From an uncultured Spirochaetaceae bacterium (lineage in GTDB: Bacteria > Spirochaetota > Spirochaetia > Sphaerochaetales > Sphaerochaetaceae): 64,000 nucleotides of DNA. Shown here in pieces: positions 20,015 through 42,973 of the stretch; the stretch's first letter is position 1; each line of letters begins with the position of its first letter. The notes under the pieces were generated by a model, which was not told the origin of the DNA, did no database searches, and saw only the letters and a program-made list of their open reading frames with translations. The stretch covers positions 1-64,000 of the forward strand of contig CALXOL010000008.1 in the NCBI GenBank assembly GCA_944390015.1, written 5' to 3'. A program made the position numbers and the translations under genes.

Positions 20015-21169
20015 ATGAAAACGATGAAAATACTTTGCACATATGTTTTAAGCGGTAACGGCCATCTGGTACCGGCAAGAACAGTTAAGATAGAATTAGA
20101 TAAAGCGGGACATGAGACGAGGCTCGAACAGGTGTTCGACATACTTAACATGAAATGGCTTGGAAGGCTAAACCGCATGATATGGCGCGAGATGCTTCGC
20201 CATTCCTCGATTGAGGAGAGCATCGTAGGTGGAGCGGACCAGTCCAATGCAATGTCTGCCTTGGTTAAATTCTGCGTGAGATTCAAATCAAAGACATTTA
20301 AAAGATATCTTGAGAAATTTCCCGCAGATGCGATCTTCGCAACTCACCCATACGGCTCGACCATATTCTCAGCAATGGTCAAACACCTCGGGCTTAACAT
20401 ACCCGTCTATTACTATGCAACAGATGTCTTCTTCTCCCCTTCTGCGGCAATATCAAATGATTTAAGAAGGTTCTTCATCCCAACTGAGGAAGGACGGAAT
20501 TACATAATCAGCAAAGGAGAAGATCCTCAGAAGGTAAGAATCTCTCCGTTTCCTTTGCAGCAGAATGTCAAGGAAAGCCCCGAGATGACAAAAGAAGAGG
20601 CAAGGGCTAAGCTAGGACTAGAGAACATCTTCACACTCCAGCTCAACATGGGTGGCGAAGGCCTTGGCTCCCTTTCCCTTCTTGAGGCTCTCGCAGTAAA
20701 GGAGTACGACATCCAGATCCTGATTGTCGGAGGAATTGACAATAAGCTGAAGAAAGAGGTTGAGAGAGTAAGAGAGAAGGCCAATAGGAACATCAGGATT
20801 ATTACAACCGGGTTTGTGAAGAACGTGAACGAATACCTCTACGCATCGGACATCGTCGCAGGCAGACTCGGCATCAATACGATTTTAGAGGCTTTCTATC
20901 TTAAGCGCCCGTTCCTCGTGACGGAGCTGGTATACTCTGTGAAACCCGCAGCCGACTACATCGAGAAATACCATGTGGGCTGGAACTGCAACAGGAACAT
21001 AGGAGATCAGGAGAAGGTGATCGACATGTATGCGACAATGACACCCCCCCCCCACGAGAGTCTCGAAGAGATGGAGAAGAACTTCTCAAGAATTCCAATC
21101 GAATACGATGCCGCATCCCTTGCAGAGATGCTCATCAGGGATACAGAGGAATTCAAGAGAGGAAATTAA
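20015..21169 (+). CDS. Glycolipid glycosyltransferase (MGDG synthase-like), copy 1
   Basis: A 384-residue GT-B enzyme of the diacylglycerol glycosyltransferase type. SGNGHLVPARTVKIELDKAG is the N-terminal membrane and acceptor region, and the donor site includes LNMGGEGLGSLSLLEAL and GRLGINTILEAFYLKRPFLV. It is clearly paralogous to the next gene over its whole length (shared EEARAKLGL and VNEYLYASD). Together they could make mono- then di-glycosyl-diacylglycerol for the spirochaete membrane. Codons 344-346 are three CCC in a run of ten C; slippage would replace the last 38 residues. The ATG at 20015 has no strong SD; a second ATG lies at 20024. Confidence 0.8.
   Translation: MKTMKILCTYVLSGNGHLVPARTVKIELDKAGHETRLEQVFDILNMKWLGRLNRMIWREMLRHSSIEESIVGGADQSNAMSALVKFCVRFKSKTFKRYLEKFPADAIFATHPYGSTIFSAMVKHLGLNIPVYYYATDVFFSPSAAISNDLRRFFIPTEEGRNYIISKGEDPQKVRISPFPLQQNVKESPEMTKEEARAKLGLENIFTLQLNMGGEGLGSLSLLEALAVKEYDIQILIVGGIDNKLKKEVERVREKANRNIRIITTGFVKNVNEYLYASDIVAGRLGINTILEAFYLKRPFLVTELVYSVKPAADYIEKYHVGWNCNRNIGDQEKVIDMYATMTPPPHESLEEMEKNFSRIPIEYDAASLAEMLIRDTEEFKRGN
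21044..21053 (+). repeat. C10 homopolymer inside the glycosyltransferase gene
   Basis: Ten consecutive C encode Pro-Pro-Pro near the 3' end of copy 1. Long C/G runs are hypermutable by strand slippage and serve as phase-variation switches in several bacteria, including Treponema pallidum. The current length keeps the frame. The equivalent position of the paralogue has no such run. Confidence 0.9.
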
Positions 21170-37599: not shown

Positions 37600-40167
37600 T
37601 CAGCAGGTAGCCCCGCCAATTACATTTTTCTTCAAGATCTTCTCTTTGTCAATCTTGTTACTAAAGAGTTTATCCTCAGTGTATTCAAGACCGAGGCGGT
37701 TTACAGTATCTGCGAAACGCTCACCACTTATTCCCTCATCGCGGAAGAGGAGTATGGCGTTCTCAACGGTCTGGATTACCTCATCCTCACTCCTGAGTAT
37801 GCGTGATAGCCTCTTACCCATCTCGATCTTCTTGCCCCAGCGCCCACCTACATAGATTGCATAGCCTGTCGTGTAATTCATACTCACACCGAACGGGCAC
37901 TTATCAAGGCAACGTCCGCAATGATTGCATTCTGAATCATTTACAACAAGTTTTCCACCATCAAGATGAGCAATGTTAATAGGACATGCCTTCTCAACCT
38001 GGCAGATCTTACAGCCTTTGCATTTAGCCACATCGAAATCAATAATCCTCTGCCCTATGATTCCTATATCATTCAGGCTCGGCTTCACACAGTTATTCGG
38101 ACACCCTCCGACTGCGATCTTGAATTTATGAGGAAGGGATACGGAGTGCCATCCCTCATAGAATATGTGATGAAGCTTATTTGAAAGATCGAACGTATCT
38201 ATAAGTCCGTACTGGCATGTCGTTCCCTTACATGAGACTACTGGGCGAACCTTACTTCCCGTTCCTCCCGTCTCAAGCCCATTCTCTTTCAAATAGGCGA
38301 TCAGAGGCTCGATGTTGCGATAATGCACCCCCTGGATTTCAAGAGTAAGACGGGTGGTCATCGTGACTTCCCCGGATCCGTACATCTCTGATGCCTCTGC
38401 AATCTTCTTCTGCTCTGTTGCTGTTATCTTACCGTTGCGGGTGATTACACGTACGTTGAAGCAGTCAGGATTCCTCTTGTCCTGAAGACAGCCAAGCCCC
38501 TTTACCCTCTTTACCTCCTCAGCAGGGATAACAGAGCCGAAATCAGGACGAACATCATTGAACGTGATTCCCCCTTCAAGCACTCTCGTATTGGTATACC
38601 CGTAATGCTTTAGCCTGTTCTGGAGGAAATATCCCCTCTTTCCTCTGGCACATACCAAAAGAAGCTTCTCATCCTTTCCAAGTCCCTCTATAGGACCATC
38701 GACCTTTCCAAGATTGACCCATGTAGCTCCTGGGATTGTCTTTTCAGGCATCACATCAATGACCTTATACCCTTTTGCCATTCCTCTCATGTACTCAAGT
38801 GGAGTAACCGTCTCAAACTCACCGAGAATCTTATTCTCAAGGATGTTACATAGCTGTACGAATGGGGATATCGCGGTTGAGAAAGGAGGTGCGTATGAGA
38901 AATCAAGAGTATCCATCTCTTCAACTCTCATGCCCTTTGAGATGGCAACGACTGCGATATCGGTAAGCTTATCGACAGCACCGCTTCCAAGGACCTGGAA
39001 GCCGAGCATCCTATGGGTCTTTCTCTCTGCGATAAGCTTCATGATGAAAAATGATGAGCCCTCATAGTAGTGTGCCTTGTCATCGGTGACGGCAAGTGCG
39101 GTAACAACATCAAAACCTTCTTTTACCGCTGCTTCCTCTGTAAGACCCGTACGACCTGCATTCAGGTTATCAAGAAGCCTGACAACCCCGGTTCCTAATG
39201 CCCCTGGATAAACTGAGTCCTTACCTACGACATTCTTTGCAAGAACCCTTGCAGAGATGTTGGCGGTAGATCCCATTGCCGAATAAAGCCTTTTACCAGT
39301 AATCCTATGACTCACCAGCGCACAGTCTCCTGCTGCATATACATCGGGGATGTTTGTCCTCATATGCTCATCCACCAATATCGCACCTTTTTCCATTTCA
39401 AGCCCTGTATTCTCAAGAAACTTCGTGGAAGGACGAACGCCAAGAGCGAGAATGACCATATCAGCCTTGATTTCAAGCTTATCAGTTTTAAGAGCGGAGA
39501 CCTTGTCAGCCCCAAGAATCGCCTCAGCCCTCACCCCTGTCTGAATGCGTATGCCGGCCTCCTCCATCTTACGCTTGGCCCATCTTGCCATCTCCTCATC
39601 CATAGCACTGGGCATTATGTTATCCGCCATATCAATGACAGTAACGGAAAGCCCGATTCTCTTAAGATTCTCAGCGACCTCAAGCCCTATGAATCCAGCA
39701 CCGGCTATCACAGCGCTCCTCACATCATCTCTTTTTGCATATGCCTTGATAGCATCAGCATCATCAGGGGTGCGGAGGGTGAAAACTCCATCAAGTTCAT
39801 ATCCCTGGATATTAGGTACGATAGGAGAAGCACCAGTTGCGATTATGAGTTTGTCATAGGTCTCCTCAATGACATTTGAACTCCCTTTAATGTAAGAGAG
39901 ACTCTTCTTTTTGAAATCAACCTCAGCAACCAGAGCATCGGTAATGACCTCAACGCCGGTTAAAGCAGAGAATTTCTCAGGCGTGTTGACTATAAGCTCA
40001 TCACGGGAGGTGATAACATCTCCGATATAATATGGAAGCCCACATCCAGCATATGAGATATCATGGCCTCCTGTAATTATCTTCACATCAATAGACCTGT
40101 CTTCCCTCTTAAGTTTCGCAGCTGCCTTTGTCCCTGCGGCAACACCACCGATTACCAGAACTTTCAT
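37600..40167 (-). CDS. CoA-disulfide reductase / rhodanese / sulfite-reductase / ferredoxin fusion
   Basis: An 855-residue multidomain enzyme. Residues 1-445: FAD/NAD(P)H pyridine nucleotide-disulfide oxidoreductase of the CoA-disulfide reductase type, with GGVAAGTKAA and the redox Cys in SYAGCG (C42). Residues about 450-540: rhodanese with active-site CARGKRG (C506). Residues about 560-710: nitrite/sulfite reductase-like siroheme/4Fe-4S domain, with CKGTTC (646-651) and CPNNC (689-693). Then two 4Fe-4S ferredoxin motifs, CKGCKICQVEKACP and CNHCGRCLDKCPFG. It could pass NADH electrons through persulfide and Fe-S centres to sulfite, polysulfide or a related acceptor. The first Cys pair is C-x4-C, where C-x5-C is usual. 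The reaction is inferred from the domains. Confidence 0.85.
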   Translation of the reverse strand: MKVLVIGGVAAGTKAAAKLKREDRSIDVKIITGGHDISYAGCGLPYYIGDVITSRDELIVNTPEKFSALTGVEVITDALVAEVDFKKKSLSYIKGSSNVIEETYDKLIIATGASPIVPNIQGYELDGVFTLRTPDDADAIKAYAKRDDVRSAVIAGAGFIGLEVAENLKRIGLSVTVIDMADNIMPSAMDEEMARWAKRKMEEAGIRIQTGVRAEAILGADKVSALKTDKLEIKADMVILALGVRPSTKFLENTGLEMEKGAILVDEHMRTNIPDVYAAGDCALVSHRITGKRLYSAMGSTANISARVLAKNVVGKDSVYPGALGTGVVRLLDNLNAGRTGLTEEAAVKEGFDVVTALAVTDDKAHYYEGSSFFIMKLIAERKTHRMLGFQVLGSGAVDKLTDIAVVAISKGMRVEEMDTLDFSYAPPFSTAISPFVQLCNILENKILGEFETVTPLEYMRGMAKGYKVIDVMPEKTIPGATWVNLGKVDGPIEGLGKDEKLLLVCARGKRGYFLQNRLKHYGYTNTRVLEGGITFNDVRPDFGSVIPAEEVKRVKGLGCLQDKRNPDCFNVRVITRNGKITATEQKKIAEASEMYGSGEVTMTTRLTLEIQGVHYRNIEPLIAYLKENGLETGGTGSKVRPVVSCKGTTCQYGLIDTFDLSNKLHHIFYEGWHSVSLPHKFKIAVGGCPNNCVKPSLNDIGIIGQRIIDFDVAKCKGCKICQVEKACPINIAHLDGGKLVVNDSECNHCGRCLDKCPFGVSMNYTTGYAIYVGGRWGKKIEMGKRLSRILRSEDEVIQTVENAILLFRDEGISGERFADTVNRLGLEYTEDKLFSNKIDKEKILKKNVIGGATC

Positions 40168-40219
40168 AATTAACCTCTTAAAAACCCATTATAGCACACT
40201 TAAATTGTTTTCCAGTGAC

Positions 40220-41425
40220 CTACTCTCCAGCCTGTCTCACATTACTGTGAGCATGAGGATGGAGCTTCTTCTCACTCAAGACACCAGACGGTGCCAGTAT
40301 CAGTGAGCTATCCCCGTTAGCCCAACGGTTAAGGATGTCTTTTCCCTCATCCAGCAGGTTCTTACAACTGTTCTTGTCCCTGTCATGGTGCGTGCCACAA
40401 CTCTTGCACGTCCACTGTCTATCAGAGAGCTTCAGGCCGTGGTTTATCTCATGGCAAGAAGAGCACCTTTTACTTGATGTAAAGAACCTATCTACTTTCA
40501 CAAGCACCTTCCCCTTATCTTTCAGCTTGTAGGAAAGCATCTCCCTCAGCATCCCATATCCGTTGTCGTATACGCTCTTGCCGAAGTTCATGGCCTTGGA
40601 CATGTGCTGGAGGTTTATGTCCTCCACTATTACGGCATCAAATGTGTCGGAGACTTTCCTGGAGAGCTTATGGAGGAAGTCCTTCCTCCTTGCACTTGCC
40701 TTCTCATGAAGCTTCCCGATTCTGTGTTTCTGTTCCCAATAGTTAGCAGACCCGTACTGCATCCTAGAAAGCTTCCTCTGTTCCTTTGCAATCCTCTCCT
40801 CAAGGCTGCGGTACCAGCGGATGTCATCTTTCGTGATGTCGTTCTCCCCTGATGCGGAGACGACGAGGGATGGCATAGAGTAGTCGAAGGCCTCGACCTC
40901 CTCATCGCTTATCCCCTCAGGGTAGCTGATGACGGTGCTTCCATCCTTTGAATCTATGTTAACAGCGATTCCTGCGATGCTGAGGCTCTCCCTTATCTCA
41001 TCTTCTTCATTGGAGGTTGCCATTTCCGATACTGCGGAAAGCTCTTCTTCATCGCTTTTCTCTGATGCTGGTATTTCCTCGCTCCCACTATCTGTTATAG
41101 CGGTAACTGTCTCGGCTGAGGAGACTGTCAGTGCATCACCCGTCTCAGATTCGTCATTTGAACATGTTTTGAATAGGATTAACAATAAGATGATGATCAA
41201 GGCCAGGATTATGAAAAGAAACGCCTTTGATTTCTTCTTCTCTACTTTTTCTTCTGCTGCTGGAGCAGCTACGGGTGCTGGTGCTACCTCAGGCGCACCC
41301 CCCCCCACGACTGGTTTAACTTCTTCTGCCTTTAAAGGCTTAAGCTCTCTGCGGATTGGATCCTTCTTACGAGCTTTCTCACGCTTTACTGAGCGTAACT
41401 TAGGGCGCTTGTTATACTTACCCAT
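40220..41425 (-). CDS. Membrane-anchored protein fused to the RuvC/zinc-ribbon half of TnpB
   Basis: A 401-residue chimera. Residues 1-65 are Lys/Arg-rich then Pro/Ala-rich; 69-85 form a membrane helix (LFIILALIIILLLILF); 90-178 are acidic and Ser-rich. From about residue 178 it is an IS200/IS605 TnpB C-terminus: RuvC-I Asp in FDYSMP (D181), RuvC-II Glu in VEDINL (E268), zinc ribbon CSSC...CKSC (321-343) and RuvC-III HDRDKN (D350). The TnpB N-terminal DNA/RNA-binding region is missing. The catalytic residues are intact, so this may be a recent insertion-fusion that replaced the end of a membrane protein, or a domesticated nuclease. No tnpA or intact element is nearby. A G9 run occurs at codons 40-43. 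Confidence 0.75.
   Translation of the reverse strand: MGKYNKRPKLRSVKREKARKKDPIRRELKPLKAEEVKPVVGGGAPEVAPAPVAAPAAEEKVEKKKSKAFLFIILALIIILLLILFKTCSNDESETGDALTVSSAETVTAITDSGSEEIPASEKSDEEELSAVSEMATSNEEDEIRESLSIAGIAVNIDSKDGSTVISYPEGISDEEVEAFDYSMPSLVVSASGENDITKDDIRWYRSLEERIAKEQRKLSRMQYGSANYWEQKHRIGKLHEKASARRKDFLHKLSRKVSDTFDAVIVEDINLQHMSKAMNFGKSVYDNGYGMLREMLSYKLKDKGKVLVKVDRFFTSSKRCSSCHEINHGLKLSDRQWTCKSCGTHHDRDKNSCKNLLDEGKDILNRWANGDSSLILAPSGVLSEKKLHPHAHSNVRQAGE
41298..41306 (-). repeat. G9 homopolymer near the 5' end of the TnpB fusion gene
   Basis: Nine consecutive C on the plus strand (nine G in the gene) encode Gly-Gly-Gly within the Pro/Ala linker. Gain or loss of one base would truncate the protein shortly after residue 43, before the membrane helix, so the tract could switch the whole chimera off. 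Confidence 0.9.
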
Positions 41426-41716
41426 TTTTGTATTCTCCCAATTTTATAACCAAATAAACATGGTTTTGGGGCATAAAAATGGGCTTCAAGTAGAAAATCA
41501 GAGAAAAAATTAGCCCATTTATCCCCAAACCGGATAGGACTATATTACTAAAAGAAAAAAAATAAAACTACCTATTTATATTTTTTGTATACTAATTTCG
41601 TTATTTCTATACATTTAGAAAAACTGTCAAAAATAAAATTGTTTAAAATGGCTTTTTTAGTGGCTTAGAAAGAGCAAGGGGCCCTTTCGAGCCCCCTACT
41701 ACAGGTGAAAAACTTC
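41426..41716. other. AT-rich intergenic region with hairpin and weak terminator
   Basis: About 290 bases between the livJ stop and the TnpB-fusion start. It contains the large inverted repeat at 41462-41531, a GTATAC palindrome (TTGTATACTA, 41585-41594) and, next to livJ, a GC-rich minus-strand hairpin (about 41677-41697) that may end the liv operon. No ORF was found. Confidence 0.5.
41462..41531. repeat. Long imperfect inverted repeat upstream of the TnpB fusion gene
   Basis: A left arm of 24 bases (41462-41485) and a right arm of 20 bases (41512-41531) are near-perfect reverse complements: GGTTT(T)GGGG(C)ATAAA(AA)TGGGCT. The loop is 26 bases of AT-rich sequence. The arms differ only by short indels. 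It lies 37 bases before the start codon, so it could form in the leader RNA, or be a palindromic element end. Confidence 0.8.
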
Positions 41717-42973
41717 CTACTTGTATTCTGCTGGGTACTGAACCTCAGTACTTGATACTTCAAATGGCCATACGGTCTTATACTCTCCGTTCTGGATCTG
41801 TGCGATAGCGACGGATGCATAAAGATTGTTCTGGCTGTGAGATGTTCCATCGACCTCCATATCGCCGAACTTGATGCGGTCGTATGGGAGGATGATCTCC
41901 GGTCCGTTAGGGAATGATCCCTGGATGTCCATAGCAGCAAGAGCATCACGTACTGCTGGTCCGTCTGTTGTTCCAGCCTGCTCGAATGCAGTCTTGAGAA
42001 TCCAGATTGCAGTGAATGACTCAGCTGAGTGTCCGTTCATGTCAACACCATACTTCTCTTTGAATGCTGCGTTGATCTCCTGACCCTTTGTAAGATCCGG
42101 GTTCCACTCTACAACCGATGCGATTCCGTTTGAGATTCCAGGAGTTGCCGGGATGTAGCTTGGATCTGCAAATCCATTAGCCTTTGCAACTACGATTGGT
42201 GGCTGATAGCCCTGCTCGGCAAGTGTCTTTGTGAAGAGGATAGCGTCGTTGATGTAGCTCTCACAGAGAACGGCATCAGGATTTGCAGCCTTGATTGAGA
42301 GAACTTCTGAAGTAAGATCTGTTGCTCCGCTGCTGTACTGTACTTCAGCTACGATCTCCATTCCATACTTTGGAGCGAAGATGTGTGCACAGCGGATGAG
42401 CTCCTGTCCGATGTTGGAGTTATCAGCAAAGATTGCGATTCTCTTAATCGGTGTTCCCCTCTCATTTCCGAGATCCTCAAGATACATGAACTGGTTCTCA
42501 ACATAGATTGAGTTCATCGGGCACATGCGGAAGAAATACTTGAATCCGAATGTGGAGAGGTTATCTACTGTGGAGATAGCCGTAAGCTCAGGAATCTGAT
42601 ACTGCTCACATACCTGTGCTACGATCTGTGTGATTGTTGACTGATGGCAACCGAGGATAGCGTGTACCCCGTCCTGTGTGATAAGGCGTTCAGCAACTGA
42701 GCGACCTACCTTCGGATCTCCCTGCGTGTCCCCACGTACGATCTCGATTGGGCGACCGTTTACACCACCCTGCTCGTTGATCATCTCAACTGCGAAATCA
42801 ACACCTCTCATGATGTTGGTTCCGATAGCTGCGTTCGTGCCGGAGAGAGCATACATGGCTCCAATCTTGATCGGCTCTGTTCCATCCTCAGCCTTGCTCT
42901 CTGCAGATCCGCCTGCAAATACCATGGCTGATGCGATAATAGCGACTAAAGCAATTGAAAGTAATTTTCTCAT
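41717..42973 (-). CDS. livJ: Branched-chain amino-acid-type ABC binding protein
   Basis: A 418-residue exported protein with signal peptide MRKLLSIALVAIIASAMVFA then GGSAESK. The body (KIGAMYALSGTNAAIGTNIMR, GVNGRPIEIVRGDTQGDP) is the type I periplasmic fold of LivJ/LivK-like proteins. It is last in a five-gene operon, after livF. Ligands of this family include branched-chain amino acids, urea and short amides, so the amino-acid label is by analogy. Confidence 0.85.
   Translation of the reverse strand: MRKLLSIALVAIIASAMVFAGGSAESKAEDGTEPIKIGAMYALSGTNAAIGTNIMRGVDFAVEMINEQGGVNGRPIEIVRGDTQGDPKVGRSVAERLITQDGVHAILGCHQSTITQIVAQVCEQYQIPELTAISTVDNLSTFGFKYFFRMCPMNSIYVENQFMYLEDLGNERGTPIKRIAIFADNSNIGQELIRCAHIFAPKYGMEIVAEVQYSSGATDLTSEVLSIKAANPDAVLCESYINDAILFTKTLAEQGYQPPIVVAKANGFADPSYIPATPGISNGIASVVEWNPDLTKGQEINAAFKEKYGVDMNGHSAESFTAIWILKTAFEQAGTTDGPAVRDALAAMDIQGSFPNGPEIILPYDRIKFGDMEVDGTSHSQNNLYASVAIAQIQNGEYKTVWPFEVSSTEVQYPAEYK

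What the first reader, a model, noticed from the sequence alone, without database searches (positions are those of the whole stretch)
40220..41425. Catalytically intact TnpB RuvC half fused to a membrane-anchored protein
Seen: a continuous 401-codon frame joins a basic, Pro/Ala-rich, single-helix N-terminus to the C-terminal RuvC and zinc-ribbon part of TnpB, with all three acidic residues (D181, E268, D350) and four zinc Cys present. The guide-RNA and target-recognition part of TnpB is missing. Known: TnpB needs its N-terminal domains for omegaRNA-guided cutting. Inference: either a recent IS-fragment capture that replaced a native C-terminus, or a domesticated nuclease domain with a new role at the membrane.
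Basis: partly seen in the sequence, partly recalled or inferred. Interest (0 to 1): 0.7.

Follow-up and report, generated by a model that had tools for sequence, protein, structure and literature searches.

The report
Accidental fusion of surface-protein gene and transposon
In a gut spirochaete, a chance deletion seems to have joined the start of a membrane-protein gene, in frame, to the back half of a nearby transposon's TnpB nuclease gene; the joint looks recent, is seen in this genome only, and shows no sign of a new function.

Summary
ORF 40220-41425 (-) reads in frame from a basic tail and one transmembrane helix into the C-terminal RuvC/zinc-ribbon half of an IS200/IS605-type TnpB. D181, E268, D350 and four zinc cysteines are present. 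The guide-binding half is absent.

The TnpB half is a 5'-truncated remnant of an IS with several copies in this genome. It is 93% identical in DNA to a full-length copy, and its right end is intact at 40215. The N-terminus belongs to a genus-wide family of exported, repeat-bearing envelope proteins. Intact relatives are about 500 aa, end in a barrel-like domain and contain no TnpB.

Homology to that family runs to F180 and homology to TnpB starts at E175/V177, so the two overlap. They meet in a motif (EVEAF) that both parents have. This points to a microhomology-mediated deletion between the gene and an IS downstream on the same strand. The closest species has an empty site. No other genus genome searched has the junction.

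Topology would place the RuvC half outside the cytoplasm, the left end is lost, and a G9 tract makes the frame unstable. Domestication is not supported. The most likely reading is an ordinary chimeric pseudogene.

The parts
40220..41425 (-). chimeric ORF, 401 aa, stop TAG included
41225..41425 (-). codons 1-67: basic N-terminal tail MGKYNKRPKLRSV..., start of the envelope-protein family
   Evidence: 60-69% identical over 23-26 residues to starts of genes in other genus members
41162..41224 (-). codons 68-88: single hydrophobic helix; positive-inside rule predicts N-in, C-out
   Evidence: charge count; helix 59-89 in the model, the best-scored block of it
41298..41306 (-). G9 homopolymer on the coding strand, codons 40-43; probable slippage (phase-variation) tract
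   Evidence: C9/G9 tracts with frameshift in relatives L113 and L115
40898..41161 (-). codons 89-176: acidic linker and the first half of a family repeat ending D-E-E-V-x-A-F
40886..40899 (-). junction: AGGTCGAGGCCTTC (VEAF), likely microhomology shared by native gene and tnpB; the 11 nt before TTC are identical to full-length copy L002
40223..40885 (-). codons 181-401: C-terminal RuvC and zinc-ribbon half of TnpB with D181, E268, D350
40215..40251 (-). intact IS right end: hairpin CTCACAGTAATGTGAG and conserved ...GGAGAGTAGGTCAC terminus, probable 3' end of the omegaRNA scaffold
   Evidence: the same terminus followed by unique flank in over 20 copies; omegaRNA role is inference
41460..41534 (.). 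imperfect inverted repeat upstream of the start codon, role unknown
37600..40167 (-). downstream neighbour: CoA-disulfide-reductase-like protein (name is my reading of the sequence); adjacent to the binding-protein gene with no gene between in sister species G071
41717..42973 (-). upstream neighbour: ABC-transporter substrate-binding protein (name is my reading of the sequence), 97% identical in G071

Best explanation
This is a chimeric gene made by accident. A full-length IS200/IS605-type element carrying tnpB inserted downstream of, and on the same strand as, an exported repeat-bearing envelope-protein gene. A deletion through a short shared sequence (about 11-14 nt encoding VEAF) then removed the 3' part of the envelope gene, the DNA between, the IS left end and the 5' half of tnpB. 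What remains is an in-frame joint, the RuvC/zinc-ribbon half and the intact right end. The likely effect is loss of the envelope protein. If made, the product would be an anchored protein with a non-functional RuvC half outside the cytoplasm, and a G9 tract would let the frame slip. Shown: both parents, overlapping homology at the joint, the intact right end, the missing left end, the junction in one genome only. Inferred: the order of events, the deletion mechanism, topology and lack of function.
For: The genome holds a full-length copy of 431 aa with 93% DNA identity over 689 nt, plus partial copies. All homology ends at the same right terminus. No left-end sequence is present in the window. 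Intact relatives of the N-terminal family are about 500 aa and carry no TnpB. Family matches run to F180 in many species while TnpB matches begin at E175/V177, giving a shared stretch. None of the other 47 genus genomes has a DNA match across the joint. The nearest species G071 has the same flanks with 167 bp and no gene between. The window copy has 1 synonymous and 1 nonsynonymous private change, fewer than any other copy aligned, so the fragment is young. 21 K/R before and 26 D/E after the helix predict C-out topology. Right-end-only fragments also occur in other genus members.
Against: The native continuation of this strain's envelope gene is unknown, so the microhomology on the native side is inferred from the family motif. 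The RuvC half is open, and its pairwise dN/dS against other copies is 0.08-0.23; this mostly reflects the intact copies' history but does not show decay. G071 could have lost the gene rather than never had it. The frame is intact, which a random joint gives only one time in three.
Confidence: 0.83

Rival explanations
1. A domesticated nuclease domain: the RuvC/zinc-ribbon half was captured and kept for a new, guide-independent role at the membrane.
For: All catalytic and zinc residues are present and the frame is open.
Against: One genome only. Predicted outside the cytoplasm. No guide-binding half. P316T changes a residue that is proline in all 18 other copies aligned. A G9 tract in the frame.
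Confidence: 0.03
2. Assembly chimera: the joint of envelope gene and tnpB was made by the assembler of what is probably a metagenome-derived genome.
For: IS copies lie at contig ends of this assembly (C4, C15, C32), so the repeat did trouble the assembler.
Against: The shared stretch on the native side is probably about 14 nt, shorter than usual assembly k-mers (general knowledge). The copy is 7-8% different from the longer other copies. It lies in mid-contig with flanking synteny to G071 on both sides.
Confidence: 0.09
3. The remnant has no protein role but its intact right end still makes an omegaRNA whose guide (TGGAAAACAATTTAAG...) can be used by full-length TnpB made elsewhere in the genome.
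For: The right-end hairpin and terminus are identical to those of the full-length copy L002. A full-length TnpB is encoded at C1. Right-end fragments of 77-231 bp without a left end occur in mid-contig elsewhere. A paper reports that a frameshifted tldR locus may still give guides in trans (PMC13418256).
Against: No expression data. No Rfam match. The guide is simply the local flank, as in any IS copy.
Confidence: 0.05

Closest known systems
IS200/IS605-family TnpB (ISDra2 TnpB type)
   Same: RuvC triad and zinc ribbon; intact right end; 93% DNA identity to a full-length copy in the same genome
   Different: WED/REC and HTH half absent; left end absent; fused to an unrelated membrane segment
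TldR (TnpB-like nuclease-dead repressors)
   Same: TnpB-derived protein outside a complete transposon
   Different: TldRs keep guide and DNA binding and lose RuvC activity; here the RuvC half is kept and the guide-binding half is lost
Phase-variable outer-membrane or surface proteins with homopolymer tracts
   Same: exported repeat protein with a G9 tract in the N-terminal coding part; relatives frameshifted at C9/G9
   Different: the 3' part of the gene is replaced by tnpB here; no variation data

Membership tests
TnpB RNA-guided nuclease | RuvC catalytic D, E, D | tested here: met
   D181, E268 and D350 align with solved TnpB-type chains
TnpB RNA-guided nuclease | zinc ribbon with two CxxC | tested here: met
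   C321, C324, C340, C343; PF07282 E 1.2e-20
TnpB RNA-guided nuclease | N-terminal WED/REC and HTH part that binds omegaRNA and target | tested here: not met
   only positions 196-387 of 389 of NF040570 matched; PF12323 absent here but present in the full copy
IS200/IS605 element | left end | tested here: not met
   no match to the left-end region of L002/L038 in the window
IS200/IS605 element | right end | tested here: met
   conserved terminus ends at 40215
TldR | inactivated RuvC with guide binding kept | tested here: not met
   RuvC triad present, guide-binding half absent
MGKYN envelope-protein family of this genus | basic tail, helix, repeat with YP...(S/T)DEEVxAF motif | tested here: met
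MGKYN envelope-protein family of this genus | complete repeats and C-terminal barrel-like domain | tested here: not met
   truncated at about codon 180; no barrel-domain match in the genome with the one diverged query tried
Phase-variable gene | tract length varies between cells with on/off switching | not testable with these tools
   only consensus assemblies; frameshifted tracts seen in other species

The most novel reading that the evidence does not exclude
A newly captured, guide-free RuvC/zinc-ribbon domain displayed beyond the inner membrane under control of a phase-variable G tract, cutting DNA outside the cytoplasm (for example incoming phage or competence DNA).
Probability: 0.02. Interest if true: 0.75.

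Novelty: new member of a known kind. Interest (0 to 1): 0.17.

Why it matters
As a fusion it matters little: it shows how an IS200/IS605 remnant with intact catalytic residues can pass for a domesticated nuclease when the parents and the joint explain it. Its use is as a caution for screens of TnpB fusions. The side result, a family of exported repeat proteins with homopolymer tracts frameshifted in several species of one genus, is a possible surface phase-variation system in little-studied gut spirochaetes.

Tried and rejected
A structure model of the fusion was poor (mean pLDDT 44.8, five sequences), so no fold search was made. The left end was sought in the window and not found. The region upstream of the start codon has no other full copy in the genome. 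The native C-terminal barrel was sought elsewhere in the genome with one diverged query and not found (weak negative). Rfam gave nothing. The reading of a conserved fusion family was first raised by L020, which matched both halves, and was rejected when L020 proved to be an intact tnpB lying about 100 bp upstream of an intact native gene.

Full report
Observation. The 401-codon frame at 40220-41425 (-) exists as described. Residues 1-67 are basic, 68-88 form one hydrophobic helix and 89-178 are acidic. From residue 179 the protein matches OrfB_IS605 and Cas12f1-like_TNB and the last half, positions 196-387 of 389, of guided_TnpB. D181 aligns with residue 191 of chain 9yyg, and E268 and D350 with residues 278 and 361 of chain 8bf8 (that these three are the catalytic residues of ISDra2 TnpB is my own knowledge). 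The zinc cysteines are C321, C324, C340 and C343.

The TnpB parent. The genome has a full-length copy on contig C1 (431 aa), a 5'-cut copy at the edge of C4, and pieces at the ends of C32 and C15. The window piece is 93% identical in DNA to the C1 copy over 689 nt. The C1 copy has the HTH_OrfB domain and matches the whole guided_TnpB profile; the window piece does not. In more than 20 copies of the genus the element ends in ...GGAGAGTAGGTCAC (with small variation) and unique flank follows; in the window this end is at 40215, 5 nt after the stop codon. The left end seen in the C1 copy and in G063 (L038) is not in the window. Several relatives carry a tnpA upstream of tnpB (my reading of the sequence), and the genome has Y1 transposase genes elsewhere.

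The N-terminal parent. Genes starting MGK(Y/N)N(K/R)(K/R)PKLRS occur in seven other species of the genus. In G025 and G028 the gene is intact, about 500 aa, with repeats and a C-terminal domain that looks like an outer-membrane barrel (my reading; Pfam gives nothing above its cut-offs), and has no TnpB. A wider set of relatives, some with lipoprotein-like signal sequences, shares the repeat, whose motif is roughly YP-x-x-(S/T)-D-(D/E)-(D/E)-V-x-(A/S)-F. Related contigs are from uncultured Spirochaetales, among them Candidatus Ornithospirochaeta stercorigallinarum.

The joint. Matches to the native family run to F180, while matches to TnpB begin at E175/V177. The 11 nt before the TTC codon (AGGTCGAGGCC) are identical between the window and the C1 copy. 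Because the native motif also calls for V-x-A-F here, the joint most likely used 11-14 nt of microhomology. That also explains the kept frame, since both parents read the stretch in the same phase.

Where and when. In the nearest species, G071, the binding-protein gene (97% identical protein) and the reductase gene (83%) are neighbours with 167 bp and no gene between. No DNA match in the other 47 genus genomes searched crosses the joint; all long matches start at the TnpB side. The window copy has only one synonymous and one nonsynonymous private change (P316T, proline in the other 18 copies aligned; the script printed it as 315), so the piece is recent and too young to show selection or decay. 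Pairwise dN/dS against other copies is 0.08-0.23, which mainly records the history of intact copies.

Mechanism. I infer that an IS inserted downstream of the envelope gene on the same strand, and that a deletion through the shared stretch then joined the two. The charge pattern predicts N-in, C-out, so the RuvC half would lie outside the cytoplasm, away from the chromosome and any omegaRNA. The frame also passes a G9 tract (41298-41306), one of only two G/C runs of 7 or more in the window. Relatives G009 and G022 are frameshifted at a C9/G9 tract in the same gene and continue in another frame. Expression of the fusion would therefore be switchable at best.

Comparison with known systems. Exapted TnpBs (TldRs) keep guide and DNA binding and lose the nuclease (PMC13418256); this protein is the reverse and fails a defining feature of both TnpB and TldR. 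I file it as a chimeric pseudogene holding an IS remnant. What is not excluded is that the right end still makes an omegaRNA for the full-length TnpB on C1; that needs RNA data. An assembly chimera is not excluded without reads, but the copy is distinct from the others and sits between conserved flanks.

Noticed in passing
41298-41306; L113:1789-1797; L115:1276-1284; L111 near 945: The envelope-protein family carries G/C homopolymers in its N-terminal coding part (9 in the window, L113 and L115; shorter in L111). In three other species the frame breaks at the tract and continues in another frame, suggesting a phase-variable surface protein family.
   Followed up: partly
21044-21053: A C10 tract lies inside a glycosyltransferase-like ORF (20015-21169, +) near codon 344, another possible phase-variable gene.
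   Followed up: no
L039 (G071:C7), about 100-1905: The same IS appears inserted in frame into the middle of a different TnpB gene, giving one open frame of what looks like another TnpB's N-terminal half followed by a complete TnpB.
   Followed up: no
L119 (G020:C14) 960-1179; L122 (G027:C29) 1072-1352: Short non-autonomous derivatives with IS left-end and right-end sequence but no complete tnpB, PATE-like; right-end-only fragments in L118, L120, L125 and L126.
   Followed up: partly
41460-41534: Imperfect inverted repeat (GGTTTGGGGATAAATGGGCT / AGCCCATTTTTATGCCCCAAAACC) just upstream of the fusion start codon; no second copy found in the genome.
   Followed up: partly
L020 (G028:C2) 113-1390 and 1501-2997: An intact tnpB lies about 100 bp upstream of an intact envelope-protein gene on the same strand, so the two parents are neighbours in another species too.
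   Followed up: partly
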